A stretch of 64,000 nt of DNA from positions 1,922,001-1,986,000 of the forward strand of contig NZ_UGNW01000001.1 in assembly GCF_900452515.1 (NCBI RefSeq), given 5' to 3'. The position numbers and the translations under genes are program-made. Of this stretch, positions 16,481 through 60,052 are shown piece after piece; the stretch's first letter is position 1, and every line of letters begins with the position of its first letter. Under the pieces are notes generated by a model, which saw nothing but the letters and a program-made list of their open reading frames with translations, made no database searches and was not told the origin of the DNA. This stretch comes from Legionella birminghamensis (lineage in GTDB: Bacteria > Pseudomonadota > Gammaproteobacteria > Legionellales > Legionellaceae).

Positions 16481-16741
16481 TCCGAACCCCCGCGGCAAAC
16501 TCTCCCGAATCCCCGCGGCTGCGACCGCGGGGCCCATATCTGGTGGCCGAACACTCTCCTCAGATCACAAACAAGTTTGTAAACATTATCCTTAATATGC
16601 AAGACTGATATTCTAAATAAGCTTGGTGTGGGCCCCGCGGTCGCAGCCGCGGGGATTCGGAGCGGGGAACATTTGTGTAGATATCTATGGAACCCGCGGT
16701 ATTCGCCGCGGAGATTCGGGATGGGATGCACCGCGGGGATT
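16481..16741. repeat. composite inverted-repeat element, copy A
   Basis: Two perfect 32-bp inverted arms (16505-16536 and 16629-16660) enclose a 92-bp A+T-rich core. Each arm contains CCCCGCGG and CCGCGGGG around a 6-base loop and can fold alone. A further partial arm lies at 16481-16504. To the right are the conserved tail ACATTTGTGTAGATATCTAT (16669-16688) and two more partial hairpins ending at 16741. The last part of the element is translated as the C-terminus of the SecA-like gene. The right half of the core matches copy E closely (ATTCTAAATAAGCTTGGTG here, ATTCTCAATAGGCTTAGTG there). Confidence 0.9.
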
Positions 16742-19700
16742 ATCTGACCCACGCCTTGCATCAAAAAAAGCACAGCGCCCCGTCATTCCACCAGGGCTTT
16801 GCCGATTTTTTATCGCCAATGCCGATTCAAGGCAAGTATTCAAAACAGAAGCATTCGCTTTGTCCTTCTTTTTAGATGAGGAAATTTTCTTCAATTGATC
16901 AATGGTCAAATCGTCTTTTGCCATATCCACTGTCTTGGCCATTACAGGACTTAAGCCTTCGATTAGCTCGTCTGCAGTTGGCTTGCCTGAAACCGCAGTA
17001 GCTAATTGAATCGACTTGCTGATTGTATTCTGCAAGCGGCTATTGCCAAAAAAGTGTAATGGTTTGAAAGCCTGTCGGTTAGTTGCAACATCCTGCTCGG
17101 CAATTTCAATCTGGATTTCAGATAAACACTTAACAATGGCATCTGTATTTTCAGCTCTATTAATCTCCTCTTTAATGGTTTTTACCCAGGATTTCCGGCT
17201 AGCATTAATAAACCAGCTGCATTCAAGATACTCATTTAAAAGACTCAGAGTAGCTGCCCTCACCTGCTCGGTTTCCTGCTGACAAGAAATGTTGGCAAGC
17301 GCATGAAATGTTAATAAATACCCCTCATTGCACGCGATTTTGCTTAATTGGCTTTCAAAGCCAAACCAGCGTTGTGCAAAGCTGGTCTCTTTCGTGTGAT
17401 TTTGTAAAAACTCACTGATGAATTCTTTATGAGCCTCTACAATGACTTCCTTTGTAAGTTTGCAAGTTACCAGATACTTCGCATACTCCTGGGTAAGTTC
17501 AAAATAATTATTTTTTTGTAAATTAGAAAAAAGTAAAGCGAGCTTTTTCTTCACTTGCGCCCTGGTTTCCTCAGGATTTTCATTTTCTGAAGTGAATTGA
17601 AGCATTTGATAGGCAATATCAACCGGAGGTGTACACTCTTTCAGTTCAAGGGGTTTCTCATAAACATAATAACTTTCCCTGATAGGATAACGACTATCCA
17701 AATGTGTTTTTAACCCATCAATCGTAACTACCGGTACTGATTCTATTACCTCTCTTCCCATCATTTGCTGAAACGCAACTAAAACCTCATTCAGAAATAC
17801 CTCTTTATTGTAGGAGGAAGTGTGCCTAATTTCTCTGAAACGAAACTCGGTCATCGAGCTGAAATCAGCCCATGCCTCTCTATAGAAGCGAGTCTTCCCA
17901 TGCGTAAATTGCTTATCAGAAAGCGCTTCAATCCTGCTAAAAAAATAACCAATAATATCATATAGCTCTTCATTAACATTTCTTTCCACAGCAGCAGTTG
18001 CATCAAGCTCAGCCTGAATCGCTTCAATAGATTTTCCGCCTAACTCGCTTCTATTGAAATAAAAATGCACTTCGCCAGCTGAGCCCTGCCGCCCTGTTCG
18101 TCCGCTCTTTTGTCCCATCCCCCGAACTGAGTCGACGTAGGTATGCCAGACATTCAGACCAATGTTTTTGTTGTAGTGAATATCAGTGTTCCTACCCAGG
18201 GCAGAAGTTGAAATGGTAATCATTCCAGGAAGCCCGGCATTTTTAATAAAATCTTCCTCCCTTCCAATACCGGTATATAACTGAAGGGGAAACGCTTTAG
18301 GATTTTTTGCCTGCAAGGCATTGAAAAACCTTGTAGCGGTTTCAATATCTTTAAAGAAAACAAGGCTAGGGGCTGTATTTTCATTCAAGTCCCTGGCAGT
18401 TAAATCCTGCATTAACTGAGCAAATTGTGTTTGCTCATTTTCGTAAAACCGGGGAGAAAACCAGCTCAGTTGCTGTTTTTGATGAGGAACTGCTTTTCCA
18501 AATTCGAAGCCATACTTTGAGGTTTGCTCTTCCACTTCAGTTGTTGATCCCACTGTTCCTGAAGACCCCCAGATATACCCCTTCTTGCGCCGATACCTAT
18601 CGATAAAATTCTTATTATTGGACGAGATAATGGTTTTATGAAGCGGTTCGATGACGAACTCTTCGCTGTTACGCTCCTTATTTAGGCGCGCGTACAAAAG
18701 TTGCTGCATTCCATTACCAAAAACGGAGTCTGGACTGGTTTTACCATCCTTCATCAGAATTTTAGTAACCCGGGAGCGAAACTCAACCCCATTAATCAGT
18801 TTCTTCTCATATCCTTCCGGGATCACATAGTCAAAATTTTCTTTTAATAAAAAATTAACGCTAAGCGCTGATTCCAGCCAGGACAAATATTGATAATCAT
18901 TTAATTTATCCACAAACCTGACTGGTTTCTTTAACTCCATGCCTTTCGCTTTCAGATACACTTTGAGGTTATCAATATCTTCTGCGGCAGTAGTTTTTGA
19001 GTTGTCCAGAAAACCGCTTTGGGTTACAAATTCATTAATGGCATAGTAAATCCATTCCTGTCCATAACTTATGCCGCTCCCATCTGGGGTAGCAAGACGA
19101 TTAATTACGCGGTTATTTAGTATGGAATCATCCGATTCATTCACTACCAGTGAAACACGCGTATCTTCTGACTCGATTTCAAGCCCCTGCACCTTGCACT
19201 TTGCAAAGAATAATGAAAGTTGGGCAACGGTGCTGAAGTTCACTCCGGCAGTTTGAAATGAAGTGGTCGAAGATATAGAACTAATTGCAGTTTCCGAACA
19301 GGGAATGCCGAGCAGTTGAAAGAATGGACCATAATTCACAATATCTCGTTGGGCATCCACCAACGAAGAAGTTGTAACATCAACCCGGTCAGAATCTAGC
19401 CATAACAGAGCGGCCTTCATTGAGTCGGAAAGGCTTTTTCCTTGTCCGGTATCAATATTGGAGATAAAATCCCCCTCATGCATCATCGCATCGATTAGGG
19501 CGATAATCTGCGTCGAATAAGGGAACTCCCCTGTTGCACGGTACATGGCTTCACGCATTAATCCCAAGGCCAATAAGCGCTTCTGGAAGGGACTAACCGA
19601 AGCAATAGCGCCTCGCTTTAAATCAAGAAAACAATGCTGCAATTCTTTATTACTTAATTCTTTCGCCGCCTTGTTATTATAAACCGGCAGCTCCTTACCA

Positions 19701-22700
19701 ATTGCGTTAACAAACAGGAAGGACTCCATTAACTGCTTGCGGTATTGGTAACGATATAAACTGCCATTCCCTAGATCTTTGGATTTATTAATAACCCGCT
19801 CTACCTCTGAGATTGAAAATTGCGCTGACAAATCGCGCTTCCCGAAAGGTGCCCGTTCAAACGCCAGAAGGAATTGCTCAAAAGGCTGGCTTTTATCGTA
19901 AACTTCGAGGGCATTGAGCAAACAATCTGCGGACACGGGAGACGACTGGTAAAGGCGATGAAGGCTCTGCACGTGTTCTGCCGGTAACTGGGCGAGTATT
20001 GTGACCAGTCGGCTGTAATCTACTCTTTTCTGACCACTAGCCGGCAAACGGCAAAGCGCATGTCCCCAACTGATAAGGGCCAACACCCGGGTTCGAGTTT
20101 CAGGTTCAATGGCCCTTAACTCCTCTAGTAAACCATCCAGTTTGTTTACACTGATTAATTCTTTCAGCAACAGGCTTAATTTCTCACGCGGCTCTATAAT
20201 GTTTTCGCTGAACTGAAGGATTTCAATGATCGATTGATAAGGTATTGATTGGCTTAAAACAAGCTCCAGAACGGGATCCCGGTTATTTTTTTCATAGGCG
20301 CCGGTAAGGCTGGTAAGCAATTGATCAAAATTGATATCAGGATTGGCGATGAATAATCGGGTAAATGCATCAAGGTACTGAGAAGGTACACAATGCCGAT
20401 TGAGCACCCCTAAATGATTAAGTAGCGCCAAGGTCTTTGCTTTATTCCCCAGCAACTGATTATCGATAAACAAAAGCTCAAGCAAAGATAAAAAATTTCT
20501 CTGCGGCATTGTTATCAGCAGATTTAACAATACAAACCAGGTTTCATAATCAATTTTTGAATAATCAATCTTTTCAAATAATGCTGCAAATTCCTGTTGG
20601 CACTCGTTTACAAAGGGATTTTTAGCTATTTGGCGGAAGAGCCCAGCGAGCCTGTTCGCTTCGTTATCAATTTTATTTACTTTTTCAAAATTAGAGTACT
20701 CACTGAAATCAGGCGTTTGACTTATTTTCTGTCCAATTGTGTTTAGCAACCGTTCTTCGTCAGAACTGGCAAATGCATTTTTGATGATTAGTTCTACAGT
20801 GTCTTTAAGCACTTTTTGGAACAGGACTTTTCCCGCTACTGCAAGCAAAACACCGACTTCACTCCATAAAGGATTTAAAATCTGCTGCAATTCGGATATC
20901 GAACGCGCACTGTAATATTCAGGATCTCGAAGAGCCGGTGCAGCATTTTTCACCTGCTGTAATGCCAGGATAAGATCAATCATTATTGCTTTAAGATCAG
21001 CATTATCCTTAGTGAGTACGGCGGGGAGCTCTACACCCAATGAAAATTCATATTTCTGTAAAATGGATTTGACCTGCTGATTATCAAAAGATTGGAGCTT
21101 ATCGATTTCAGCAAAGGCAGAAAGAAACTTATCGTAGCTAAACCATGAGCGCGCCTGTAAAATCATTTTTATTGCGTACTCAAAATTATTGGGCTGTGGT
21201 TGTTCGGCTGCTTTATGAAAATATTCCCTGACTTTCTCAACTTTTTCTTTCGCGTTCCTATCTTTCCTGGCATGGAAATAATGAGATTGTGTGCTGCTAT
21301 TAACCAATCCTGAAAATAACAGCAGATCATCACGATAAACTGCAGCAACCAATGGATCCTCTGCAAGAAGTTCTGCTGTATCCAGCGCGTAAAGAAATGG
21401 CCATTTAGGGTTAGTATGCTTCATGCGATATTCAAAAAGCTTGAAAACAGCAAATTTATTTAGTTTTAACTGATGAAGCAGCTTGGTAATACACTCCGTT
21501 TTACTTATTCTCAGGCCTTCAAATTCTGCGGAATTCATTCCTGATATAGACTCAAAAAGCATCGCCCCTTCTGCTTCATTAAGCTTAACGTCCAAATGAT
21601 AAAGCTCATTTAACAACTTCATTCCCTGGATAATCACTTCAGGATGTATGACCGCACGATTTAGGGTCGTCAATAGTTTTTTTAATGGAGTATCTCCCTT
21701 AAACCTTTCATGGGAAACCAGAAATAATGTCGTTAACAGTTCGGATGATAAACTGATTTCCTCCCAATAATTACTGGAGAAGTCATCAAATTGCGCTTTC
21801 AATGAATGAACGGTAATCCCTGATGACTGCATTCCTATCCAGCGAAGTGCCAAAGCATAAATCTGTTCTTTTGAGAAGCGGACGGGTTTTTCCTCACAGA
21901 CAAGATTTAGGTGCTCGCCTTCTGCATGATAGAGCTTATAAGGAGGAATGAAATCATTTCCGCAGTAAGGGATGGCAAGACCACTGGCCCTTAGAGCGTT
22001 TAAATCAAGCGGTTGGGGCAACTCATTTTCACAATTAATCAGCCACAAATTTTTGGAGGATTTCGGGTAAAACCCAATATCATATTCCTTGCTAAGAATG
22101 TACTTATCTAGCAGTGATTTAAAATCAACTGGATAGAACGAAAAATTAGGATTGAAAGGCCTGGCATCGCGCTGTTCTGGATCATAATGAAAACGCATAG
22201 CGCGGTGGACTGATTTAAAGCCCTCATATCGGGCAGCGTAATAGGCCTCATAATTTGTTAAACAAAGTCCCTCCAAACCTTTGAACTGATCGTCCAAATC
22301 ACGGGCATTCTTGAGAATGAACAATAATCTCTCCATATAAACACGTGGATGCCCCCCGTTGGGAGTACTCCAGTCAGCATTAATGCCTTCAATACTTACT
22401 TTTTTCTCCAGGCAAAGAATTTGTAAGGAACTCCAGAACATTTCAAAGGCAGTCAGCGTTTCACTCAAATCATGTCGGGATGAGCCGGTATTTTCGAGGA
22501 ATTTTTTAAAACAATTCAATTTCGTTTTATCATAATGACTCATTTTCTCAAGACTTTGAAAGAAGCACTTTTTATTATATAAATGCTCCCATTGCGGGAA
22601 ATGAGTTAAATAATTCTGAATAATAAATTTCAGCAAGCCCGGGGATTTGGAAGTACTTCCCCTTAGATCGTTAAAAAAAGAACTTACCCCCGTTTCGCCA

Positions 22701-23851
22701 TGATAAATCCATAAATTAATCAAATGCCCAGGTGTTGAATAAGGTTTTCCCTGGGGGCAAAGCATTTCAGAAATCTCAGGATCATTAATCCATGCCCTGA
22801 CGTCTTCTTCATTCAATTGCAGATCATAAACAGCTTTTATACTTAACTCAGCGCTTGTACCAGGAGGGGTCCAGCTATTGACCTCTTCCTTTTCAAGCAA
22901 AGGATCAAAATCCAGAACCAATTCACCAAATTGAGTTTTTTTTAATAAAAAACCATGGGGTAAATTTTCTTTATTTAAACTCGCCAAAGCAGGTAGATTT
23001 TCAGCCAGTTGCTCAGCTGCAAGCGGGCTCACAAATTTGATTGCATGAGGCAGATTGGCAAATAATTCGGTGCGTAATAAGTTATAAAGATGATTGCTTA
23101 TCTGGGCACTGCCAGTTACTTCCCTTACAATATTGGAATACTGGGGCTCTTTGAACTCATCAAATCCAATTAATCTTCCTGAATAAGCCTGTATCTCCTG
23201 GGCATCTATTTGTGCTTCAGCGACTTCTTCATAAACAGTTTGTTGCTCTGTCGTTTCTACATGCTGGATTTCAGCATGGATATATCGGGAGCGATTTTCT
23301 GCTTGCAGCTTATTTTGTCTGATTAATTGCTTAAGTTTAATTTCCCTGGCGATAGGATCATCGGCATCCAGGCTTCTTCGGCTGCCTGGATTCCGTGGAA
23401 GAGGCGCAACAAAATGACGATTTTTTTCCTGGATATTGGCAATAATGATAGACTGAAAAGTTATCAGAGAGAATGTGTCTGCAGGGCTAATGTGAATGGG
23501 ATACTTTACAGCAGGAGCTATCTGCTGGTTCAATTGCCGTGTCACCGCAGCTGCATCAGCAATCCTTTCTGGAAACACGAGTTCCAGACTAAAAGATTGG
23601 ACATCATTTAACCGGCTAAGACAATCCAGAAAATGAGGGTTATCAAGCATTTGCGGATTGATTTGCAGAGATAATTTTGCAAAAGGAAATGGCTTTTCCT
23701 GTTTGATGAATTCCTGGAGCTGACTCAAATCAAGATCATTCATTATTTTTTGTACAGTCAGATGCAAAGGGAAATTACTACTAGCCAATGCCTTTAATTG
23801 TTTCTCCATTGTTATTAATTCAGTGTCACTGATCTGTACTTTTTTTAGCAT
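16685..23851 (-). CDS. giant protein with a SecA-like DEAD motor and a long helical N-terminus
   Basis: About 2388 residues. The first 1420 or so are mostly helical and unlike anything I recognise. A SecA-type motor follows: Walker A DTGQGKSLSDS (about 1467), TSSLVDAQRDIVNYGPFF (SecA has a similar AQRD...F block), NESDDSIL at the DEVD Walker B position (about 1572), a region where SecA has its preprotein cross-linking domain, GSSGTVGSTTEVEE (about 1764), LGRNTDIHY (about 1885) and SGRTGRQGSAGEVHFYF (about 1917). About 450 helical residues follow. It has no signal peptide or SecA zinc tail. The last 18 residues are encoded by repeat element A. An ATG at 23884 overlaps the -10 box and is rejected; 23860 or 23851 remain. 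It is not the housekeeping SecA; an effector or phage-like motor role is speculation. Confidence 0.85.
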   Translation of the reverse strand: MLKKVQISDTELITMEKQLKALASSNFPLHLTVQKIMNDLDLSQLQEFIKQEKPFPFAKLSLQINPQMLDNPHFLDCLSRLNDVQSFSLELVFPERIADAAAVTRQLNQQIAPAVKYPIHISPADTFSLITFQSIIIANIQEKNRHFVAPLPRNPGSRRSLDADDPIAREIKLKQLIRQNKLQAENRSRYIHAEIQHVETTEQQTVYEEVAEAQIDAQEIQAYSGRLIGFDEFKEPQYSNIVREVTGSAQISNHLYNLLRTELFANLPHAIKFVSPLAAEQLAENLPALASLNKENLPHGFLLKKTQFGELVLDFDPLLEKEEVNSWTPPGTSAELSIKAVYDLQLNEEDVRAWINDPEISEMLCPQGKPYSTPGHLINLWIYHGETGVSSFFNDLRGSTSKSPGLLKFIIQNYLTHFPQWEHLYNKKCFFQSLEKMSHYDKTKLNCFKKFLENTGSSRHDLSETLTAFEMFWSSLQILCLEKKVSIEGINADWSTPNGGHPRVYMERLLFILKNARDLDDQFKGLEGLCLTNYEAYYAARYEGFKSVHRAMRFHYDPEQRDARPFNPNFSFYPVDFKSLLDKYILSKEYDIGFYPKSSKNLWLINCENELPQPLDLNALRASGLAIPYCGNDFIPPYKLYHAEGEHLNLVCEEKPVRFSKEQIYALALRWIGMQSSGITVHSLKAQFDDFSSNYWEEISLSSELLTTLFLVSHERFKGDTPLKKLLTTLNRAVIHPEVIIQGMKLLNELYHLDVKLNEAEGAMLFESISGMNSAEFEGLRISKTECITKLLHQLKLNKFAVFKLFEYRMKHTNPKWPFLYALDTAELLAEDPLVAAVYRDDLLLFSGLVNSSTQSHYFHARKDRNAKEKVEKVREYFHKAAEQPQPNNFEYAIKMILQARSWFSYDKFLSAFAEIDKLQSFDNQQVKSILQKYEFSLGVELPAVLTKDNADLKAIMIDLILALQQVKNAAPALRDPEYYSARSISELQQILNPLWSEVGVLLAVAGKVLFQKVLKDTVELIIKNAFASSDEERLLNTIGQKISQTPDFSEYSNFEKVNKIDNEANRLAGLFRQIAKNPFVNECQQEFAALFEKIDYSKIDYETWFVLLNLLITMPQRNFLSLLELLFIDNQLLGNKAKTLALLNHLGVLNRHCVPSQYLDAFTRLFIANPDINFDQLLTSLTGAYEKNNRDPVLELVLSQSIPYQSIIEILQFSENIIEPREKLSLLLKELISVNKLDGLLEELRAIEPETRTRVLALISWGHALCRLPASGQKRVDYSRLVTILAQLPAEHVQSLHRLYQSSPVSADCLLNALEVYDKSQPFEQFLLAFERAPFGKRDLSAQFSISEVERVINKSKDLGNGSLYRYQYRKQLMESFLFVNAIGKELPVYNNKAAKELSNKELQHCFLDLKRGAIASVSPFQKRLLALGLMREAMYRATGEFPYSTQIIALIDAMMHEGDFISNIDTGQGKSLSDSMKAALLWLDSDRVDVTTSSLVDAQRDIVNYGPFFQLLGIPCSETAISSISSTTSFQTAGVNFSTVAQLSLFFAKCKVQGLEIESEDTRVSLVVNESDDSILNNRVINRLATPDGSGISYGQEWIYYAINEFVTQSGFLDNSKTTAAEDIDNLKVYLKAKGMELKKPVRFVDKLNDYQYLSWLESALSVNFLLKENFDYVIPEGYEKKLINGVEFRSRVTKILMKDGKTSPDSVFGNGMQQLLYARLNKERNSEEFVIEPLHKTIISSNNKNFIDRYRRKKGYIWGSSGTVGSTTEVEEQTSKYGFEFGKAVPHQKQQLSWFSPRFYENEQTQFAQLMQDLTARDLNENTAPSLVFFKDIETATRFFNALQAKNPKAFPLQLYTGIGREEDFIKNAGLPGMITISTSALGRNTDIHYNKNIGLNVWHTYVDSVRGMGQKSGRTGRQGSAGEVHFYFNRSELGGKSIEAIQAELDATAAVERNVNEELYDIIGYFFSRIEALSDKQFTHGKTRFYREAWADFSSMTEFRFREIRHTSSYNKEVFLNEVLVAFQQMMGREVIESVPVVTIDGLKTHLDSRYPIRESYYVYEKPLELKECTPPVDIAYQMLQFTSENENPEETRAQVKKKLALLFSNLQKNNYFELTQEYAKYLVTCKLTKEVIVEAHKEFISEFLQNHTKETSFAQRWFGFESQLSKIACNEGYLLTFHALANISCQQETEQVRAATLSLLNEYLECSWFINASRKSWVKTIKEEINRAENTDAIVKCLSEIQIEIAEQDVATNRQAFKPLHFFGNSRLQNTISKSIQLATAVSGKPTADELIEGLSPVMAKTVDMAKDDLTIDQLKKISSSKKKDKANASVLNTCLESALAIKNRQSPGGMTGRCAFFDARRGSDNPRGASHPESPRRIPRVP

Positions 23852-23882
23852 TGCAGCCATCCATAATTCACAAAGAATGAAC

Positions 23883-23911
23883 ATTATAATTTATGCGGAT
23901 TTTTTGTTCAA
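23883..23911 (-). promoter_or_regulatory. sigma-70 promoter of the SecA-like gene
   Basis: Reading the minus strand, TTGAAC (23911-23906), a 17-base spacer and a perfect TATAAT (23888-23883). Transcription should start near 23876. This puts the ATG at 23884 inside the promoter and moves the translation start to 23860 or 23851. Confidence 0.65.
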
Positions 23912-30363: not shown

Positions 30364-30790
30364 CCAAGTCTCTACACAAATGTTTTCCCCGTCCGAATCC
30401 CCGCGGCGCCGACCACCGAATCCCCACGGCACCGACCGCCGTATCCCCGTGACACCGACCACCGAAACCCTGCGGCACCGACCACCGAAACCCCGCGGCA
30501 CCGACCGCCGAATCCCCGTGACACCGACCACCGAAACCCCGCGGCACCGACCGCCGAATCCCCGCGGCGCCGACCACCGAGTCCCCACGGCACCGACCGC
30601 CGTATCCCCGTGACACCGACCACCGAAACCCCGCGGCACCGACCGCGGGGCCCATGCCTGTTGGAGTAGCATGGTACTCAAACAAGTTTTCAATGTTGCC
30701 AAAATAAGATTTAACGGGTAGTCATAAACAAGTGGACTTAATTAAATTGGCTTCGTCTGGGCCCCGCGGTCGCAGCCGCGGGGATTCAAT
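30364..30790. repeat. composite inverted-repeat element, copy B, with a tandem array
   Basis: From the left: a conserved outer tail (CTACACAAATGTTTTCCCC), eleven 23-bp tandem units (30393-30645), an arm at 30623-30654 sharing the last unit, a 103-bp A+T-rich core (30655-30757) and the opposite arm (30758-30789). The core is clearly related to that of copy D read on the other strand (both contain CCTGTTGGAGTAGCATGG and CAATGTTGCCAAAA). The element fills the spacer between the convergent hydrolase and lipoprotein genes. Confidence 0.9.
30393..30645. repeat. tandem array of eleven 23-bp units
   Basis: Units follow CCGAATCCCCGCGGCRCCGACC plus one base, without any spacer. Units 1 and 8 are identical, as are 3 and 10, while 2/9 and 4/11 differ at one or two bases, so a block of seven units was probably duplicated. 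Because 23 is not a multiple of three, all frames give Arg/Pro-rich open frames that are not genes. The unit equals the outer 23 bases of the element arm. Confidence 0.93.
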
Positions 30791-35230: not shown

Positions 35231-35550
35231 CCCATGGATACCTTAGGATTCCCCGCGGCATAGACCTACGAATCCCCGCGGCAAACGACCGCGGGGTCCA
35301 CGTGATGCCTATTCAGGGTATCAGTCAGTCTAACCCAAATTGTATTAACACCGTCCGGCCTGAGGAGGAGCAAAGCTCCGTCTCGAAGGCTTGGCACCTA
35401 GCGAAGCCTTCGAGACACCGCTAAAGCGGCATCTCAGGCCGAACGGATTGAGATAAGCTGAGGATCACTCAGACATGGGCCCCGCGGTCGCAGCCGCGGG
35501 GATTCGACTGCATTTGTGTTGATAGCTATGGTCTAAGCCGCGGAAATTCT
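35231..35550. repeat. composite inverted-repeat element, copy C, with a nested element
   Basis: Arms at 35269-35300 and 35476-35507 enclose a 175-bp core, longer than in other copies because a second palindromic element (35351-35448) sits inside it. One extra partial arm lies to the left (35245-35268). Outer tails are CCATGGATACC on the left and CATTTGTGTTGATAGCTATG on the right, the inverse of each other in part. It lies between the coiled-coil gene start and the 3' end of the nuclease gene. Confidence 0.87.
35351..35448. repeat. second palindromic element nested in copy C
   Basis: The ends CCGTCCGGCCTGAG and CTCAGGCCGAACGG pair with each other. Inside are GTCTCGAAGGCTT (35380-35392) with its perfect complement (35404-35416), plus small stems GGAGCAAAGCTCC and CCGCTAAAGCGG. 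A shorter solo relative is at 55383-55431. Confidence 0.8.
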
Positions 35551-43721: not shown

Positions 43722-43724
43722 CCC

Positions 43725-43828
43725 TCCGAATCCCCGCGTACAGTTGACCGTCCGAATCCCCGCGTGCAGTTGACCGTCCGAATCCCCGCGTGCAGTTGAC
43801 CGTCCGAATCCCCGCGTGCAGTTGACCG
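43725..43828. repeat. tandem array of four 26-bp units
   Basis: Each unit reads TCCGAATCCCCGCG then TRCAGTTGACCG. Units 2 to 4 are identical and unit 1 differs at one base. The last 12 bases differ from the arrays of copies B and E. Confidence 0.92.
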
Positions 43829-44023
43829 TCCGAATCCCCGCGGCTGCGACCGCGGGGCCCACACGAAGCCAATTTAATGTTAAGCACACTTAGTTTATGA
43901 CAACCTGTTAAATCTTATTTTTTGGCAACATTGAAACTTGTCTGACGACCATGCTACTCCAACAGGCATGGACCCCGCGGTCGGTGCCGCGGGGATTCGC
44001 TGGTCGATGCCGCGGGGATTCGG
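43725..44023. repeat. composite inverted-repeat element, copy D, with a tandem array
   Basis: Four 26-bp tandem units (43725-43828) lead into a left arm (43830-43861) identical to the left arm of copy A. The 107-bp core is 43862-43968 and the right arm 43969-44000, followed by one more partial unit to 44023. Read on the minus strand, core and both arm loops match copy B, so B and D are the same subtype in opposite orientation. The array is on the opposite side of the core from that of B. It fills the spacer between convergent ygfZ and cytochrome b561 genes. Confidence 0.92.
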
Positions 44024-44041
44024 ATTTGCCCAGCAGGAACC

Positions 44042-52601: not shown

Positions 52602-52647
52602 TCGATCTATTTAAAATAGCCGCTTTTGAATTGGTATAAGGTTAATA

Positions 52648-53130
52648 ATGTCATTAGTTAAAACAGGGTTTGCAGGAGTTTTGTCTATTCTTGCTTCAGT
52701 AAGCGGCTACGCTGAAGGCTTTCCACGAGGCTGTGAAGTGACAGGCTTTGGCTATAATGGATACAATTTAGTCCTTAATGAAACTGGCGAACAAAGCTAC
52801 TACCTCATTCAGAATCGAAGCACTCATAATGTTGAATTGCAACGTATCGAGACAAAAGAAGTATTTATGAGTCCTCCCCTAACAGCAAAATTACAGGCTG
52901 CAAATTGGGCTGCATTTGCATCCGATGAAAAAGAATTTAACTTTCAATGTTTTGTTGTAGAAGATAACAACACTGAAAAAGTCGATTGCCGTGAGGTTCT
53001 CGATGTATGCCAATACCCAAGAGCAAAATTCGCTTTAAGCAATATGGGTAATTATTGGGTTTCCACTAACAAACCACAACGTGAAGTTATCAATGACTCA
53101 GCAGCAAAAGGCATCTATTTACGCTGGTAA
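52648..53130 (+). CDS. exported protein resembling enhanced entry protein EnhB
   Basis: A 160-residue protein with a signal peptide (TGFAGVLSILASVSGYAEG) and a small domain with four Cys (GCEVTGFGYN, FQCFVVE, KVDCREVLDVCQYPRAKF) that could form two disulfides. The pattern FPRGCEVTGFGYNGYNLVLN and the C-terminal GNYWVSTNKPQ look like Legionella EnhB-family proteins as I remember them, which is not a strong basis. EnhB-type genes have been linked to host-cell entry. The next gene begins four bases after the stop. Confidence 0.6.
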   Translation: MSLVKTGFAGVLSILASVSGYAEGFPRGCEVTGFGYNGYNLVLNETGEQSYYLIQNRSTHNVELQRIETKEVFMSPPLTAKLQAANWAAFASDEKEFNFQCFVVEDNNTEKVDCREVLDVCQYPRAKFALSNMGNYWVSTNKPQREVINDSAAKGIYLRW

Positions 53131-53134
53131 CAAG

Positions 53135-53635
53135 ATGTCGCTAACATTCCGTGATTATTTCTTTCTACTCGTTGGCATAGCGGGAGCGATCATTACTCTG
53201 TATGGTTTTACCCAGTTTAATGCGCAAGCTTATTATGTTGCTGGCTCCAGCCTGCTTTTAATCACGGCTATTTATTCAAGGCTGGTTTTTTTCATTGCTC
53301 TCGAGTTAATATTGATTGCGGGCCATGGTGCTATATTGCTTGGGATTGGTTCTATCCTGCAATTTGCTATCCCTGTCCTGTTATGTATTCAGCTATTGAC
53401 CTTTTTCTACCTTATCGGACAACTCAATAATATCTATCTTTTGATTGGGATTGTTGGAATTGGAAGTTTATCTATCGGTTTTGCTTATGCCAATGACTGG
53501 ATATTTTTTATTGGCGGCGTATCCCTGGCGATTTATGCCTTTTCTATTGTTAAAAAAAATCCGCTGGTATTACTCTGGGCGATATTAAACAGTTTGTTTG
53601 CACTTATTGCTATTATTAATGTAATTTTTAGCTAA
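53135..53635 (+). CDS. polytopic membrane protein of unknown function
   Basis: A 166-residue protein with seven hydrophobic segments and very few charged residues (FFLLVGIAGAIITLYGF, LIAGHGAILLGIGSILQFAI, IVGIGSLSIGFAYANDWIFF). No family is recognised. An ATG at 53081 lies inside the previous gene and would overlap it by 50 bp. The ATG at 53135 directly follows the previous stop and starts at the first membrane segment, so it is chosen. Co-transcription with the EnhB-like gene is likely. Confidence 0.7.
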   Translation: MSLTFRDYFFLLVGIAGAIITLYGFTQFNAQAYYVAGSSLLLITAIYSRLVFFIALELILIAGHGAILLGIGSILQFAIPVLLCIQLLTFFYLIGQLNNIYLLIGIVGIGSLSIGFAYANDWIFFIGGVSLAIYAFSIVKKNPLVLLWAILNSLFALIAIINVIFS

Positions 53636-53654
53636 CTGTACTAAAGGAGTAGCT

Positions 53655-54212
53655 ATGGCAAGAACACCTTCAAATATGACAGAACTGGGAACGCCCGCTC
53701 CTCAATTTTCCCTGACTGATGTGATCTCTAACAAACGGGTCGATCTGCGTTCACATCAGGGCAAGATTGCTACTGTCATTATGTTTATCTGTAATCATTG
53801 CCCTTATGTAAAGCATGTCAATAGAGAGCTCAGTCAATTGGCAAAAGATTATTCCGGCAAAGACATCAGTTTTATTGCTATAAACTCTAACGATGTTAAA
53901 AATTACCCGGATGATTCCCCTGAAAACATGCGCATCACGGCTATCCAGGAGAACTATCAATTCCCTTATTTATTTGATGAAACCCAGGAAGTAGCCAAAG
54001 CTTATCAAGCGGCCTGCACCCCTGACTTTTTTATTTACGATGCTGATTTAAAATTGGTATATCGCGGCCAACTTGACGATTCACGCCCGGGAAATCAAAT
54101 TCCAGTCACCGGCAGTTCCATTCGGGAGGCGCTTGACTGTCTGATGAGCAACCAGTCAATTTCTACAGAACAAAAACCCAGTCTGGGATGCAATATTAAG
54201 TGGAAGGAATAG
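53655..54212 (+). CDS. thioredoxin-fold peroxiredoxin-like protein
   Basis: A 185-residue cytoplasmic protein of the AhpC/TSA-redoxin group. Seen: TELGTPAPQFSL at the start of the fold, the active-site segment FICNHCPYVKHV with a CxxC pair near residues 46-49, and the cis-Pro loop CTPDFFIYD. The CNHCPYV form is typical of thioredoxin-like proteins annotated as alkyl hydroperoxide reductase/thiol-specific antioxidant. The substrate is unknown. AAGGAG precedes the ATG. Confidence 0.85.
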   Translation: MARTPSNMTELGTPAPQFSLTDVISNKRVDLRSHQGKIATVIMFICNHCPYVKHVNRELSQLAKDYSGKDISFIAINSNDVKNYPDDSPENMRITAIQENYQFPYLFDETQEVAKAYQAACTPDFFIYDADLKLVYRGQLDDSRPGNQIPVTGSSIREALDCLMSNQSISTEQKPSLGCNIKWKE

Positions 54213-54229
54213 CTGCTTAATATGGTCTT

Positions 54230-54249
54230 GTTGGGCTTTACAGCCCAAC
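54230..54249 (+). repeat. short hairpin repeat, GTTGGGC...GCCCAAC
   Basis: A 7-bp stem (54230-54236 with 54243-54249) closes the same loop TTTACA and is followed by CTACA as at 7602-7621. The outer pair has changed on both sides (C-G to T-A), keeping the stem. It lies 18 bp after the redoxin stop. Confidence 0.7.
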
Positions 54250-54289
54250 CTACACTTTCTACAGTTGCACAATAAAAAAGGAAAATAGA

Positions 54290-55294
54290 ATGTCGGAAAA
54301 TCATGCACAAATTGTACGTTTTCATAAAACAGGCAGTTCTGATGTTTTAAAATTTGAAGAAATCACTTTGCCCGAACCTGGGCCAGGTGAAGTACGCCTG
54401 CGCGTTCATGCGATTGGATTAAACCGTGCAGAGATAATGTTCCGGACGGGCCAATATCTTATCGCTCCGCAATTTCCTTCAAAAATTGGATATGAAGCGT
54501 CGGGTATTGTCGAAGCAGTTGGCCCCGGAGTCGATTCGACGATGATCGGTAAAAAGTTCAGCTCTGTACCCTGTTTTGATATGGGGCAATATGGCGTCTA
54601 TGGTGAAGTCGCGATATTACCAGCTTACTCTTTAGCTGCTTATCCTGAAAAGCTGTCTTTTGCAGAAGCCACTTCCATCTGGATGCAGTACATGACTGCC
54701 TATGGTGCGCTTATTCATTATGGAAATGTGTCCAAAGGCGATTATGTGCTGATCACAGCAGCTAGCAGCAGTGTCGGTGTTGCTGCAATTGAAATAGTTC
54801 GCGCGCAAGGCGGAATAAGCATTGCAACCACGCGCACGAGAGCTAAAAAAGCCGAGCTGCTCGAACTGGGAGCAGATCATGTTATCGTGACTAACGAAGA
54901 AGATTTGGCTGCCCGGGTCAAAGAAATTACCCAGGGTAAAGGCGCACGCGTCATTTTTGATCCAATCGCTGGGAAAGGCATCGAGGCACTGGCTGAGGCT
55001 GCAGCAGAAAGGGGGATCATTTTTGTTTATGGCGCTTTGGCAAATGATCCAATGCCCTTCCCCTTATTTACCGCTTTAAGCAAGGGATTAACCATTCGAG
55101 GATATACACTGTTCGAGCTCAGCACTAATCCGGAATTACGTAAAAAAGCCGAGCATTATATTTTCGAGCATCTGCAGAATGGTACTTTCAAACCCCAGAT
55201 AGCCCGTACATTTTCCCTGGAAGAAATCCAGGAGGCACACCGCTATATGGAATCTAATGAGCAAATTGGAAAAATTGTTGTTCTTGTGGAGTAA
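54290..55294 (+). CDS. zinc-independent MDR oxidoreductase (quinone reductase type)
   Basis: A 334-residue medium-chain dehydrogenase of the zeta-crystallin/quinone-reductase branch. Seen: a GroES-like N-terminal domain (FEEITLPEPGPGEVRLRVHA), IGYEASGIVEAVG, the NADPH site DYVLITAASSSVGVAAIEI, and RVIFDPIAGKG. The catalytic zinc ligands of alcohol dehydrogenases are absent. The true substrate is unknown; reduction of quinones or enals is usual. AAGGAA lies before the ATG. Confidence 0.85.
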   Translation: MSENHAQIVRFHKTGSSDVLKFEEITLPEPGPGEVRLRVHAIGLNRAEIMFRTGQYLIAPQFPSKIGYEASGIVEAVGPGVDSTMIGKKFSSVPCFDMGQYGVYGEVAILPAYSLAAYPEKLSFAEATSIWMQYMTAYGALIHYGNVSKGDYVLITAASSSVGVAAIEIVRAQGGISIATTRTRAKKAELLELGADHVIVTNEEDLAARVKEITQGKGARVIFDPIAGKGIEALAEAAAERGIIFVYGALANDPMPFPLFTALSKGLTIRGYTLFELSTNPELRKKAEHYIFEHLQNGTFKPQIARTFSLEEIQEAHRYMESNEQIGKIVVLVE

Positions 55295-55382
55295 GCCCTC
55301 TTTGCAAGCAAAGTGAAGGCAATCAAGAACGCTGCCCGATAGAGCTTCGATTTTTAACACAAACTTCAGCTTTTGTCTTAAT

Positions 55383-55431
55383 CCGTTCAGCCTGAGGAGC
55401 CGCTTTAACGGCGTCTCCTCAGGCCGAACGG
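55383..55431. repeat. palindromic element, short relative of the one nested in copy C
   Basis: CCGTTCAGCCTGAGGAG pairs with CTCCTCAGGCCGAACGG with one mismatch, and an inner CCGCTTTAACGG can form a small stem. The left and right ends match those of 35351-35448. It lies between convergent oxidoreductase genes. Confidence 0.75.
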
Positions 55432-55458
55432 GCCTGATACAATCCGAGTCGGTCAGTG

Positions 55459-56448
55459 TTATTGCATAGTAATAACCGCTCGAAAACGCACTGTTCCATT
55501 CTTCACTTTATCGTAAGCTTCATTGATATTCTTCAAAGGATAAGTTTCAGTGATAACTTTTACTTTGCCTTTAGCCACCATATCCAGGGCTTCAAATAGG
55601 AACTCCCGGTGATTTTGCTGGCTGCCAATAATTTTTAGACGTTTGCTAATTAATTCTCCAATTGAAATTTGCAAGGGGCTGGTATCAAGTCCCATTGTGA
55701 CGAATCGTCCATCCGGTCGTAAAGCTTTGAAGCTATCGAGCATGGCCGCATTGGAGTTGGTTGTGCTGAGAATAATATCAGCTCCGCCAAGCTTTGCCAG
55801 TTCCCTGCCATTACGAACCACTTCATCCGCCCCCATCTCTTTGATTAGAGCATCTTTATCCGGTGAGTGGGAGACGGCAATTGTTTCGAAGCCGGCTGCA
55901 TGGGCATATTGGACGGCCAAATGCCCCAACCCGCCAATTCCTACTACAGCAATGCGTTCATTCGGTTTAGGCTCAGCCCAGCGAAGCCCTGACCATACTG
56001 TATAGCCAGCACAGAAAATTGGAGCTGCCTGCTCGAAACTGACGCCATCAGGAATTAACATCGTCGCATCGGCGGGAGCTACCATATACTCCGCATGCCC
56101 ACCGGCAACATCGCCTGCAGTTGCATGCATATTTGGGCAAAATAATGTTCGACCCCTCAGACACCATTCACAGCGGCCGCAGGTGCTTTGTACCCATGGC
56201 ACACCCACTCGGTCACCTACTCGCCGACTGGTCACACCAACGCCTATTTCAACAATCTCCCCCACAGGCTCATGGCCCAGGGTACGGGGAAAGGGGCCTG
56301 GCAGATGGCCTTCAGTTTGGTGGACATCCGTGTAGCAAAGACCGCTGGCATGAATTTTAATCAATACCTGATTGACATCAGGTTTAGGTGTCGCGATTTC
56401 CCTGACTTCCCAGCCCGCACTTTTACCCGGTACAATTGCAGCTTTCAT
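55459..56448 (-). CDS. zinc-dependent alcohol dehydrogenase
   Basis: A 329-residue medium-chain zinc alcohol dehydrogenase of the AdhP type. Seen: CYTDVHQTEGHLPGPFPRTLGHEPVG with the catalytic zinc ligands Cys and His-Glu, the structural zinc loop CGRCEWCLRGRTLFC, the catalytic Cys in FCAGYTVWSGL and the NAD site VVGIGGLGHLAVQYA. It probably oxidises ethanol or reduces acetaldehyde. GGGAGAG precedes the ATG. It is divergent from gatC and convergent with the quinone-reductase gene. Confidence 0.9.
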   Translation of the reverse strand: MKAAIVPGKSAGWEVREIATPKPDVNQVLIKIHASGLCYTDVHQTEGHLPGPFPRTLGHEPVGEIVEIGVGVTSRRVGDRVGVPWVQSTCGRCEWCLRGRTLFCPNMHATAGDVAGGHAEYMVAPADATMLIPDGVSFEQAAPIFCAGYTVWSGLRWAEPKPNERIAVVGIGGLGHLAVQYAHAAGFETIAVSHSPDKDALIKEMGADEVVRNGRELAKLGGADIILSTTNSNAAMLDSFKALRPDGRFVTMGLDTSPLQISIGELISKRLKIIGSQQNHREFLFEALDMVAKGKVKVITETYPLKNINEAYDKVKNGTVRFRAVITMQ

Positions 56449-56502
56449 AATTCTCTCCCTGAGTATGTTTCAATAATCATAGTACAGGTATATTTAAATA
56501 GG

Positions 56503-56508
56503 TATAAT
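56503..56508 (+). promoter_or_regulatory. probable -10 box before gatC
   Basis: A perfect TATAAT, with a start expected near 56515 and a leader of about 32 bases. The -35 region is weak (TAGTAC at a 17-base distance). Confidence 0.35.
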
Positions 56509-56546
56509 ATGCGGCAGACGATTAATCAGTATTTACAGGTAATTGC

Positions 56547-56852
56547 ATGACATTTTCAATAAACGATTTGCATTTAATCGCTAAGCTGGCTCATATTGAT
56601 GTAGAAGCGGAAGAGATGAGTTCTCTGGCGGAAGAGGTTAATTCAATTATTGATTTTGCAGAGCAGATGCAAGAAATTGATACCGATCAAATCCTGCCGC
56701 TTTTTCATCCCATGGATATGCATCAGCGTTTTCGCGATGATGAAGTGAGTGAAAGCAGTTGTCTGCAGCAGTTGGAAGAAATCGCCCCATTATTTGAAGA
56801 TACCCATTATCTGGTACCCAAGGTTATAGACACGGGAAAGCAGGATGTTTAA
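56547..56852 (+). CDS. gatC: Asp/Glu-tRNA amidotransferase subunit C
   Basis: A 101-residue subunit that stabilises GatA-GatB and helps convert Asp-tRNA(Asn) or Glu-tRNA(Gln) to the amide form. Seen: [20 protein letters not shown], a helical N-terminal part and the PLFHPMD segment in mid-protein. CAGGT lies before the ATG. The gatA start overlaps its last codons by eight bases, showing translational coupling. Confidence 0.93.
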
Positions 56853-58287
56853 AAACTTACGAGAACTTATTTCTGCCCTGCATAGCAAAAAAATTTCCAG
56901 TGCAGAGTTAACCAACCATTATTTTGAACGCATTAATCAATATCAAACCTTAAACTGCTTTATCAATGTTGATTATGATGCAGCAATGCGACAGGCCAGA
57001 AAAGCAGACCAGCTAATTCAAAGTGGCGAGGGACAGCTGCTGACTGGCGTGCCAATGGCACATAAAGATATTTTCTGCACGACTGATTTTCCGACCACCT
57101 GCGGCTCTAGAATGCTGGCTGATTTCAAATCACCTTATGCTGCCACGGTAGTAAGTAAATTAGCAGGACAAAGTCCAGTATTGGTGGGAAAAACCAATAT
57201 GGATGAATTTGCTATGGGCTCCACTAATGAAAACAGCTATTTTGGCCCGGTCAAAAACCCATGGAATCCATCCTGTGTCCCCGGCGGCTCGTCTGGCGGC
57301 TCGGCAGCGGCAGTAGCGGCTGATCTTATCGCATTCGCTACAGGTTCAGATACTGGCGGCTCTATCCGTCAACCGGCTGCTTTTTGCGGTATATCCGGTA
57401 TTAAACCGACCTATGGCCTTGTTTCCAGATACGGTATGGTTGCCTATGCTTCAAGCCTTGACCAAGGCGGCCCCATGGCTCGGACAGCAGAAGACCTGGC
57501 CTGCATTTTAAGCGTCATGGCTGGATTTGATCCCAGGGACTCTACTTCTTGCCAGGTGAGTATTCCTGATTATTCAAGCAACCTGAATCAATCGTTAAAA
57601 GGATTGCGCATAGGTCTTCCCTCCTGCTTTTTCCAGCCGCAGGTCAACCCGGGGATTCAACAGATAATCAGACAGGCAGCCAGGGAGCTGGAAACAGCCG
57701 GTGCAATTATTGTGGAAATTGATCTTCAGTTACAATCCCTATGGGTTCCCTGCTATTACCTGATTGCATGTGCGGAAGCCTCCTCCAATCTGTCACGCTA
57801 TGATGGACTGCGTTTTGGTTATCGCAGTGATAAAGCCGCCAGTATCGGCGAGCTGATTTCTGCATCACGCTCTGAAGGATTTGGAATTGAGGTAAAACGT
57901 CGAATCCTGACAGGGACTTATGCCCTTTCTTCGGGTTATTTTGATGCTTATTATCTAAAAGCCTTAAAAATACGTCGCCTTATTCAGGAGGAGCTGCTTG
58001 AGCAATTCAACAAGGTAGATATTGTTTTAGGCCCAACCACCCCAGGCCCAGCCTTTGAGCTAGGCACAAATAATTCAGATCCGGTGCAAAATTACTTGGC
58101 TGATATTTTTACAGTTGCCTCCAATCTGGCAGGAATTCCAGCCATTTCCATTCCTGCGGGACAAATGAATGGCTTACCCGTGGGCATGCAGCTCATGGCG
58201 AAACACTTTAATGAATCATTGCTGTTAAATGTCGCCCATCAATTTCAGCAGTTAACTGATTGGCATCAATACCGTCCGGCTCTGTGA
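56845..58287 (+). CDS. gatA: Asp/Glu-tRNA amidotransferase subunit A
   Basis: Amidase-signature enzyme that releases ammonia from glutamine for the transamidation step. Seen in 480 residues: the catalytic Lys in [10 protein letters not shown] (near residue 75), the Ser-rich [15 protein letters not shown] and the Ser-cis-Ser region [13 protein letters not shown]. Length and context are typical. It lies between gatC and gatB in one transcript. Confidence 0.96.
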
Positions 58288-58297
58288 GGAAACTTTT

Positions 58298-59734
58298 ATG
58301 CAATGGGATACAGTCATTGGCCTTGAAGTACATGTACAGCTACAAACAAAATCCAAGCTTTTTTCAGGCTCAGCCACCCGGTTTGGTGCTAAGGCAAACA
58401 CGCAAACCTCATTTATCGATGCCGGGCTTCCTGGTGTTTTACCCGTTTTAAACATTGAAGCAGTCCGTATGGCGATTCAATTTGGCTTGGCAATCAACGC
58501 CAATATTAATAATTTGTCTTATTTTGAACGCAAAAATTATTTTTATCCTGATTTACCCAAGGGTTATCAAATCAGCCAATATCAATCCCCCATTGTCAGT
58601 AATGGCCGCCTGAGAATCGAAACACCAGACAAACGCATTAAAGAGGTAGAAATTGTACGAGCGCATCTGGAGGAAGATGCTGGAAAATCGGTTCACGATG
58701 CGAATCCTGACTACACAGGTATTGATTTAAATCGTGCCGGGACAGCTTTATTGGAAATTGTCACCGCTCCCTGTCTGTATTCTATCGAAGAAGCCATTGC
58801 CTATCTTAAAATCCTGCATCAATTGGTGCGGTTTTTACATATTTGTGATGGGAACATGCAGGAAGGATCATTCCGCTGCGATGTCAATCTCTCGCTCAAG
58901 CCTGCAGGCTCCGAAAAGCTGGGTGTGAGAACTGAACTAAAAAATCTCAATTCCTTCCGTTTTATCGAGAAAGCCATTGCTTATGAACAGGCAAGGCATC
59001 AGGATTTGCTGGAAAATGGCCAGCCTGTTATCCAAGAAACGCGCTTATTCAATCCTGATACAGAGCGAACCTATGCATTACGTAGTAAAGAAAATGAGCA
59101 GGATTATCGTTATTTTCCCGATCCGGATTTATTACCCATTGACATTAAAACCCTGGATATTGAAAAAATCAAAAACAACTTGCCGCCTTTGCCTGAACAA
59201 ATCAAAAATGAGCTGGCAAATCTTGAAAGTGTGAATGAAGACGATATCCAGTTTTTACTTTCTTCGCCGGATAACTACCACTTTTTTATGGAGATCATGA
59301 GAGAAATACCAGCGGATGGAAAATTAATTATAAACTGGCTTAAAGGTCCCTATCAGGCCTTGTTGAAAGAAAAACAGCTCGAATTTTCAAATCCGCTGAT
59401 TTCAGCCCAACAAATGGCTATTTTGCTAAAGTATTTGAAGAATGCTGCAATTTCCAATAATCAAGCCCGTCAGATATTCAATAACCTGACTAGCCACCCT
59501 GAGGCCGATATTAATGAGCTGGTTGAAAAAGCAAAGGCCAATCAATCACAAAGCTCAGGTGAAATCGAACAGTTTATAAAAGAACTGATTGCAAAAAACC
59601 CTTCCCAGGTTCAAGAGTATCGGCAAGGAAAAGAGAAAATTCTTGGTTTTTTCGTGGGTCAGGTAATGAAATACTCTAAGGGACAGGCGGATCCAACCGA
59701 GGTTAATGCGTTATTAACAAAATATTTGGCTTAG
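58298..59734 (+). CDS. gatB: Asp/Glu-tRNA amidotransferase subunit B
   Basis: tRNA-binding and kinase subunit that activates the mischarged Asp or Glu. Seen in 478 residues: VIGLEVHVQLQTKSKLFSG at the N-terminus, RKNYFYPDLPKGYQISQ, HLEEDAGKS, GVRTELKNLNSFRF and the helical tail of the YqeY type (LKYLKNAAISNNQARQIFN). GAGGA precedes the ATG ten bases after gatA. The repeat element E begins 20 bases after the stop. Confidence 0.96.
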   Translation: MQWDTVIGLEVHVQLQTKSKLFSGSATRFGAKANTQTSFIDAGLPGVLPVLNIEAVRMAIQFGLAINANINNLSYFERKNYFYPDLPKGYQISQYQSPIVSNGRLRIETPDKRIKEVEIVRAHLEEDAGKSVHDANPDYTGIDLNRAGTALLEIVTAPCLYSIEEAIAYLKILHQLVRFLHICDGNMQEGSFRCDVNLSLKPAGSEKLGVRTELKNLNSFRFIEKAIAYEQARHQDLLENGQPVIQETRLFNPDTERTYALRSKENEQDYRYFPDPDLLPIDIKTLDIEKIKNNLPPLPEQIKNELANLESVNEDDIQFLLSSPDNYHFFMEIMREIPADGKLIINWLKGPYQALLKEKQLEFSNPLISAQQMAILLKYLKNAAISNNQARQIFNNLTSHPEADINELVEKAKANQSQSSGEIEQFIKELIAKNPSQVQEYRQGKEKILGFFVGQVMKYSKGQADPTEVNALLTKYLA

Positions 59735-59754
59735 GTCTGAGACCGTGTGGATAG

Positions 59755-60052
59755 AACCCGCGGCGCAGTCCATCGAATCCCCCGGGTATATGCCCCTTCG
59801 AATCCCCCGGTAATGCCCCTTCGAATCCCCGCGGCATCGACCGCGGGGCCCATGTCTAGTACTTTAAGTTTCGCAATGTTGCCAAATAGCGATTGAAAAG
59901 GCAGTTAAAAACAGGCCTTTTTAAAATTTTTCTTAATTAGCAAAACCGACATTCTCAATAGGCTTAGTGTGGGCCCGCGGTCGATGCCGCGGGGATTCGG
60001 AGCGGAAAAACACTTGTTTAGATACCTATGGACCGGTGCCGCTGGGATTCAA
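59755..60052. repeat. composite inverted-repeat element, copy E
   Basis: Three irregular outer units lie at 59755-59821. The left arm is 59822-59852 and the right arm 59970-60000, one C shorter, around a 117-bp A+T-rich core. The two arm loops are exact complements (GCATCGAC and GTCGATGC). The right side has the conserved tail ACACTTGTTTAGATACCTAT followed by a degenerate hairpin to 60052. It fills the spacer between convergent gatB and transpeptidase genes. Confidence 0.88.

What the first reader, a model, noticed from the sequence alone, without database searches (positions are those of the whole stretch)
16481..60052. Five-copy family of composite hairpin elements with a shared A+T-rich core
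Copies at 16481-16741, 30364-30790, 35231-35550, 43725-44023 and 59755-60052 share one design: two inverted arms of about 32 bp, each a hairpin of CCCCGCGG and CCGCGGGG, around a core of 92-175 bp, with outer tails of the form CATTTGTGTAGATATCTATG. Cores are related: copies A and E share the right end, and B and D nearly the whole. This is larger and more structured than a simple REP repeat. I infer a non-autonomous mobile element or a structured RNA family. No transposase is seen.
Basis: partly seen in the sequence, partly recalled or inferred. Interest (0 to 1): 0.85.

Follow-up and report, generated by a model that had tools for sequence, protein, structure and literature searches.

The report
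Hairpin-armed mobile elements with nuclease kin
The five hairpin-flanked repeats are copies of a small mobile DNA element that is scattered in very many copies through this one bacterial genome; relatives of the element in other bacteria carry a tiny DNA-cutting enzyme gene between the same hairpins, which points to an enzyme that may spread a whole class of bacterial repeats.

Summary
In detail: five composite elements with inverted hairpin arms; cores shared by A/E and B/D. The window's genome has 184 + 184 inner-arm matches and 534 exact half-units; the exact half-unit is absent from the 10 other genus genomes. Sites D and E lack the element in the relatives where they could be read: insertions.

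Three layers. (1) The arms are REP-like palindromes. In nine other family genomes the same palindrome abuts a ~96-aa GIY-YIG endonuclease gene, with an inverted pair in 6 of 7 testable loci. Palindrome class follows nuclease clade. Class-wide, 22 of 26 GIY-YIG loci have flanking inverted repeats, mostly CGTC-type REPs, reported in 2013 to lack a dedicated transposase (PMC3733652). (2) Cores form four families. (3) The tails are ends of an IS4-like transposon.

The window's genome lacks both the matching nuclease and that transposase. Best reading: orphaned, non-autonomous REP-type elements, once driven by a GIY-YIG nuclease and partly by an IS4-like transposase. Nuclease action is inferred, not shown.

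The parts
16481..16741 (.). Copy A: left half-units (16481-16504), left arm 16505-16536, core 16537-16628, right arm 16629-16660, tail 16670-16689, further right half-units
16505..16536 (+). Left hairpin arm of A (CGAAT head outward, CCCA tail inward)
   Evidence: (perfect 32-bp inverted repeat with 16629-16660)
16629..16660 (-). Right hairpin arm of A
16670..16689 (+). Tail of A: right terminal repeat of the IS4-like transposon family
30364..30790 (.). Copy B: degraded tail 30364-30382, tandem 23-bp half-units about 30390-30623, left arm 30624-30653, core 30654-30758, right arm 30759-30788
35231..35550 (.). Copy C: left arm 35269-35300, core 35301-35475 with a nested second palindrome, right arm 35476-35506, tail 35511-35530
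43725..44024 (.). Copy D: 26-bp half-units 43725-43830, left arm 43831-43861, core 43862-43968, right arm 43969-43999, extra half-unit 44002-44024, no tail; between convergent genes; site without the element in relatives
59755..60052 (.). Copy E: left half-units, left arm 59822-59851, core 59852-59969, right arm 59970-59999, tail 60011-60030; between convergent gatB and a YkuD gene; site without the element in relatives

Best explanation
The five features are copies of a non-autonomous, REP-type mobile element. Its arms are palindromes (8-bp stem CCCCGCGG/CCGCGGGG, usually 6-nt loop, CGAAT head, CCA tail) that are the partner sequence of one clade of small stand-alone GIY-YIG endonucleases. 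In the nuclease-bearing form, found in other genera, the arms flank the nuclease gene; in the window's species they flank a non-coding core, nearly always of one of four families. Proposed working: the nuclease recognises the palindrome, probably as a hairpin in single-stranded DNA, and cuts it; repair or recombination with another copy then duplicates arms and core into new intergenic places, and repeated cutting and copying at the arm stacks half-units into tandem arrays. A second layer is an IS4-like transposon end (CATAGNTATCTACACAAATG) around some copies, which would let that transposase move them. Shown: arms, copy number, species restriction, sites without the element, nuclease-bearing relatives with the same arms, clade-palindrome match, transposon ends. 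Inferred: recognition and cutting by the nuclease, that it drove the spread, and how arrays grow. In this genome neither enzyme was found, so the family appears orphaned.
For: 184 forward and 184 reverse inner-arm matches (up to 1 mismatch) and 534 exact half-units in the own genome; 0 exact half-units in the other 10 genomes of the genus. The same arms flank a GIY-YIG ORF in G040, G047, G067 and G071 and, by inverted-repeat alignment, in G113, G119 and G125. 9 of 9 fetched nucleases at least 77% identical to the G047 protein have this palindrome beginning right at the stop codon. Flanking inverted repeats at 30 of 65 family nuclease loci with both flanks at least 150 bp; 325 shuffles reached at most 32 against a threshold of 36; random gaps reached it in 1 of 100 (same genus) and 0 of 200 (window). 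Palindrome class follows nuclease clade: 5 changes among 6 classes, the minimum, over the 62 labelled of 70 rows. Class-wide 22 of 26 loci, against 17 of 238 random gaps in unrelated genomes. Two-sided stem changes in nuclease-linked palindromes. Left and right loops of own elements match in 27 of 72, against 12.6 shuffled, maximum 22 in 2000. Sites D and E lack the element in relatives.
Against: The own genome has only one GIY-YIG match, 46-48% identical, next to a different (CGTC-type) repeat array, so the cognate nuclease is missing where the family is largest. Adjacency and clade match can follow from simple linkage: gene and palindrome inherited together. 35 of 65 family loci have no detectable inverted pair, and 8 of 70 have no palindrome of the six classes after the stop; with these counted as a state of their own the tree needs 11 changes where 6 is the least. 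37 of 72 own copies carry an IS4-like end on at least one side, so a transposase could explain those. No cleavage, binding or transposition was observed.
Confidence: 0.55

Rival explanations
1. The elements are plain MITEs of an IS4-like transposon. The 20-bp tails are the functional ends, the transposase moved them in trans, and the palindromes are cargo or target sequence: the transposon prefers palindrome loops.
For: Tails equal the ends of a complete 1.3-kb IS in G106 with a 422-aa DDE transposase. 116 tail matches with up to 2 mismatches in the own genome and 149 in G129. In G129, 7 of 11 short elements have 8 or 9 of 9 matching flank bases, and 9 of 11 sit in palindrome loops by my reading of the flanks.
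Against: 35 of 72 own paired copies have no tail (up to 4 mismatches, within 90 bp) on either side, D among them. Own-genome flanks of 15 tail-to-tail pairs show no 9-bp duplication (133 of 1000 shuffles as good) though a 10-bp signal (2 of 1000; one of three lengths tried). The transposase has no match at E 1e-20 in the own genome or in G129. The nine genomes with the class-A nuclease have no tail match.
Confidence: 0.25
2. The palindromes and cores spread by general recombination, gene conversion and replication slippage, with no dedicated enzyme, from a few ancestral copies; the nuclease link in other genera is unrelated.
For: Neither enzyme was found in the genome. Arrays with variable half-unit number. 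Arms are exchanged between copies (only 27 of 72 loop pairs match).
Against: Many dispersed copies, with no exact half-unit in the other 10 genus members, and sites without the element, need an insertion step. The same palindrome is fused to a nuclease gene in nine other genomes.
Confidence: 0.12
3. They are RNA elements: bidirectional terminators or 3'-end stabilisers kept for function.
For: Three of five window copies (B, D, E) lie between convergent ORFs, two between co-directional ones and none between divergent ones; strong folds.
Against: No Rfam match at gathering score; equal folding of both strands; absence from the same gene pairs in related species.
Confidence: 0.06

Closest known systems
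CGTC-tagged REPs (Di Nocera et al. 2013, PMC3733652; abstract, section 6 and found passages seen)
   Same: Short palindrome with an 8-bp stem and 3-nt CCA tail, dimers around a spacer, location mostly downstream of genes; classes C, D and E found here beside nucleases are of CGTC/TGTC type
   Different: The window arm has a CGAAT head and usually a 6-nt loop instead of CGTC and 4-5 nt; it forms tail-to-tail pairs with cores of about 90-175 bp and tandem half-unit arrays. That paper reports no dedicated transposase for CGTC REPs; here a GIY-YIG nuclease is the associated gene.
Ssn nucleases and the NTS repeat of Neisseria (Nat Commun 2025; recalled only, nothing of it seen: look-up not held, searches)
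   Same: Small GIY-YIG enzyme paired with a sequence present in hundreds of copies (recalled); the N. gonorrhoeae gene found here lies among CGTCATTCCCGCG repeats
   Different: The window family has other arms, cores and transposon ends, and its genome lacks the matching nuclease. Whether the Ssn paper describes nuclease genes flanked by inverted repeats, or this bacterial family, I cannot say.
Neisserial dRS3/NIME repeats (search listing only; dRS3 = CGTC-1 per PMC3733652)
   Same: Non-coding segments flanked by short palindromes, many copies (partly recalled)
   Different: Different sequence; I know of no IS4-like ends there
IS4-family insertion sequences and their MITEs
   Same: Tails equal the ends of an IS4-like element in G106; short elements with 9-bp flank repeats in G129
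   Different: Only part of the copies carry them; transposase not found in the own genome
GTAG REPs with RAYT transposases (REPtrons; PMC3733652)
   Same: REP, enzyme gene, REP arrangement
   Different: Enzyme is GIY-YIG, not a tyrosine transposase; no GTAG head on the palindrome

Membership tests
CGTC REP | CGTC (or TGTC/CCTC) unpaired head | tested here: not met
   Head of the window arm is CGAAT
CGTC REP | 8-9 bp stem | tested here: met
   8-bp stem CCCCGCGG
CGTC REP | 4-5 nt loop | tested here: not met
   Commonest loops are 6 nt (CTGCGA and others)
CGTC REP | CCA tail | tested here: met
   Arm ends in CCCA or TCCA
GIY-YIG-linked palindromes (Ssn-like) | GIY-YIG domain protein encoded beside the palindrome | tested here: met
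   In nine other genomes, not in the own genome; G047 protein matches Pfam PF01541 at 55.4 bits
GIY-YIG-linked palindromes (Ssn-like) | Matching nuclease present in the same genome as the repeats | tested here: not met
   Own genome has one GIY-YIG match only, outside the class-A clade
GIY-YIG-linked palindromes (Ssn-like) | Site-specific cleavage of the single-stranded palindrome | not testable with these tools
   Needs an enzyme assay
IS4-type MITE | Both terminal repeats of an autonomous IS | tested here: inconclusive
   12 of 72 copies on both sides, 25 on one, 35 on none
IS4-type MITE | Target-site duplication | tested here: inconclusive
   G129: 7 of 11 at least 8 of 9 bases, reached on average by 27 of 1000 shuffled pairings; own genome weak
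IS4-type MITE | Autonomous IS in the same genome | tested here: not met
   No match to the G106 transposase at E 1e-20 in the own genome
GTAG REP / RAYT | GTAG head on the palindrome | tested here: not met
   a GTAG string occurs inside the transposon end, not at the palindrome foot
GTAG REP / RAYT | RAYT gene in the genome | not tested
   -
Rfam RNA family | Match at gathering score | tested here: not met
   0 matches in the window

The most novel reading that the evidence does not exclude
Stand-alone GIY-YIG endonuclease genes flanked by inverted REP palindromes are a widespread class of minimal mobile element (nuclease REPtrons), and they are the missing engine of the CGTC-type REPs; palindrome and nuclease evolve as matched pairs. 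The window shows what remains after the engine is lost: a large orphan family of composite copies, about half of them (37 of the 72 sampled) also bearing ends of an IS4-like transposon.
Probability: 0.45. Interest if true: 0.8.

Novelty: new variant of a known kind. Interest (0 to 1): 0.62.

Why it matters
CGTC-type REPs were described in 2013 as apparently lacking a dedicated transposase (PMC3733652). Here a GIY-YIG nuclease gene sits between inverted repeats, mostly of that type, in 22 of 26 class-wide loci examined, and within one bacterial family each nuclease clade has its own palindrome. This gives a named candidate enzyme with a predicted target for each repeat family, so the question becomes testable by simple cleavage assays. 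A genome in which such palindromes are very numerous without their enzyme would be a natural case of a mobile family outliving its engine.

Tried and rejected
No match of copy A in plasmids and no exact 18-base arm string in viral contigs. The idea that the window's own GIY-YIG gene drives the family was set aside: it lies outside the class-A clade and sits at a CGTC array. The idea that cores are remnants of the nuclease gene was dropped: one core (D) searched in 143 genomes hit six other genomes only with 20-31-base matches at E 0.002-0.009, and none was coding by eye; I ran no protein search on the cores. A 9-bp target duplication in the own genome was not supported. TIR and array appear mutually exclusive per side (Fisher p 4e-6), but a TIR fills most of the stretch searched for array units, so this is weak. 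In one search the script mis-paired a few arms: the core lengths 172 (copy B, true core about 105), 296 (L147) and 137 (L286) are such artefacts. No solved structure matched the nuclease by sequence at E 0.01.

Full report
The finding is real. The five copies stand at the stated coordinates. CCCCGCGG occurs 28 times where shuffles give 1.07 and the 30-bp arm pattern 9 times where shuffles give none. Copy A has perfect 32-bp inverted arms. Outside the arms lie tandem half-units of the same palindrome: 23-bp units in B and 26-bp units in D. The tail is present on one side of A, C and E, degraded in B, absent in D.

Extent. The window is G000:C1:1922001-1986000 of a 3.79-Mb genome in two contigs. 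That genome holds 534 exact copies of CCGCGGGGATTCG (283 + 251) and none of the reversed control, and 184 + 184 matches of the inner arm CGACCGCGGGGCCCA with up to one mismatch, with one match of the reversed control. If most arms are paired, as in the sample below, that means well over a hundred elements; I did not count pairs in the whole genome. Of 11 genomes in the genus only this one has the exact 13-mer; of 143 in the family 24 have it, 21 of them besides this one in 1-8 copies, with 25 in G127 and 37 in G129.

Anatomy from 86 own-genome loci (81 fetched stretches plus the five window copies). A script recognised 72 paired elements, with none in 14 of the loci. 69 of the 72 core lengths lie between 90 and 141 bp; of the other three, 175 is copy C and 172 and 296 are mis-pairings. 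Cores fall into four families of 26, 25, 10 and 8 members, with 3 singletons; the first two hold B and D, and A and E. Cores occur in both orientations. Left and right loops match in 27 of 72 elements, against 12.6 in shuffled pairings with a maximum of 22: arms tend to travel as a pair but are often exchanged.

Insertion. The genes left of D and E were sought in all 10 relatives of the genus. At E the gap to the next gene (between protein-alignment ends) is 357 bp here, 44-46 bp in G003, G007 and G008, 112-115 bp in G005 and G006, and 141-304 bp in G002, G004, G009 and G010, in no case with this element; the second gene was not found near in G001. At D the gap is 327 bp here, 98-102 bp in G007, G008 and G010, about 230 bp in G005 and G006, where a different repeat with GCGAGCG...GAAGCAATCCAG occupies the slot, and 333 and 289 bp in G003 and G009, again without this element; the second gene was not found near in G001, G002 and G004. 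I read these elements as species-specific insertions, in slots that other repeat families can also settle.

The nuclease. In relatives the same arms flank a GIY-YIG gene. The G047 protein is 96 aa and matches Pfam GIY-YIG at 55.4 bits. A family search found GIY-YIG matches in 113 of 143 genomes, in up to 28 places per genome, as expected of a mobile gene. I examined 71 loci: 31 returned by the searches chosen by me from the list. Six had a flank under 150 bp. Of the other 65, 30 have a flanking inverted repeat scoring 36 or more and 35 do not; 325 shuffles reached at most 32. Random gaps gave 1 of 100 in loci of the same genus, 0 of 200 in the window and 17 of 238 in unrelated genomes. Of 70 loci that could be read past the stop codon, 62 have a palindrome of one of six classes within 100 bp. 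Class A, the window's arm, is at 9 of 9 proteins with at least 77% identity to the G047 one, from nine genomes; 6 of the 7 of these with long enough flanks show the inverted pair. Over the 62 labelled rows the six classes need 5 changes on the protein tree, the minimum; with the 8 unlabelled rows as a seventh state 11 changes are needed, 6 being the least. The tree is short (96 columns) and contains near-copies, two classes have one row each, and the class consensus strings were chosen from the same loci. A blunter test, any perfect stem of 8 bp within 75 bp after the stop, gave 32 of 63 distinct nucleases against 19 of 114 other genes. Class B palindromes show two-sided stem changes at four of eight pairs among 19 distinct sequences, with some broken pairs (worst pair 15 of 19 paired); class A at one of eight among 5.

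Beyond the family. A class-wide search covered 274 genomes, 60 with a match at 1e-15. Of the 30 loci returned, one belonged to the family and was dropped and three had short flanks; 22 of the remaining 26 have a flanking inverted repeat. By my reading 18 of these 22 carry the GTCAT head of CGTC/TGTC-type REPs, such as CGTCATTCCGGCGAATGCCGGAATCCAG. In four named records, chosen by me from 33 with a match, the gene also lies among inverted repeats: of CGTC type in N. gonorrhoeae and A. lipoferum, where the gene stands between sufB and sufC; of another type in S. meliloti; in Planktothrix the score only equals the threshold. [quoted passage not shown] The loci here look like such REPtrons, with a nuclease instead of a transposase.

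The tails. CATTTGTGTAGATANCTATGG with up to two mismatches occurs 116 times in the own genome, 149 in G129 and 20 in G106, and in 6 of 143 genomes in all. In G106 it bounds a complete insertion sequence with a 422-aa DDE transposase, best matched among transposase models by IS4-family ones though below their cut-offs. In G129 the same ends bound short elements, 9 of 11 of them in palindrome loops by my reading; 7 of 11 have at least 8 of 9 matching flank bases, but because the target is itself repetitive 27 of 1000 shuffled pairings do as well on average. In the own genome 15 tail-to-tail pairs show no 9-bp signal and a 10-bp one. REPs as targets of insertion sequences are known (PMC1525189, abstract seen). 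At 1e-20 only G106 and, as a broken relative, G113 match the transposase; the own genome and G129 do not.

Reading. Palindrome, core and transposon end are separable layers. The palindrome is the layer shared with the nuclease elements, so I take the GIY-YIG nuclease as the likely original engine, with IS4-like transposition as a second route for the tailed copies. Neither enzyme was found in this genome; the only GIY-YIG match lies outside the class-A clade and at a CGTC array. Enzyme action is inferred from adjacency and clade match, which linkage alone could also produce. A related enzyme family (Ssn, Neisseria) is recalled from memory; I found no held paper on it (searches; look-up), so I cannot say how much of the general nuclease-palindrome link is already in print.

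Noticed in passing
window 16685-23884 (-): A 2399-aa ORF with SecA-like domains has its stop codon inside element A, so its last codons come from the element.
   Followed up: no
L180 (own genome C1:2154871-2158140): The genome's only GIY-YIG match (L180:1492-1785) ends against a long tandem array of CGTCATTGCGAGC...GAAGCAATCCAG repeats.
   Followed up: partly
L167-L169 (G127): Class-A palindromes lie inside a different MITE-like element with CACTGCCATTAAGTTAAG ends.
   Followed up: no
L162/L185 (G067): A nuclease element has mirror-image arrays of about 44-bp units on both sides, giving an inverted repeat of over 200 bp.
   Followed up: no
window 35301-35475: The core of copy C contains another palindrome family (CCGTCCGGCCTGAG...CTCAGGCCGAACGG).
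   Followed up: no
window 60085-60642: The YkuD gene beside E is 98% identical at protein level to G005/G006 while neighbouring GatB is 82%.
   Followed up: no
window 7604-7626, 54232-54254: A small repeat TGGGCTTTACAGCCCAnCCTACA, 96% alike between the two places.
   Followed up: no
L368 (Azospirillum lipoferum plasmid AZO_p3): A GIY-YIG gene flanked by REP dimers stands between sufB and sufC.
   Followed up: partly
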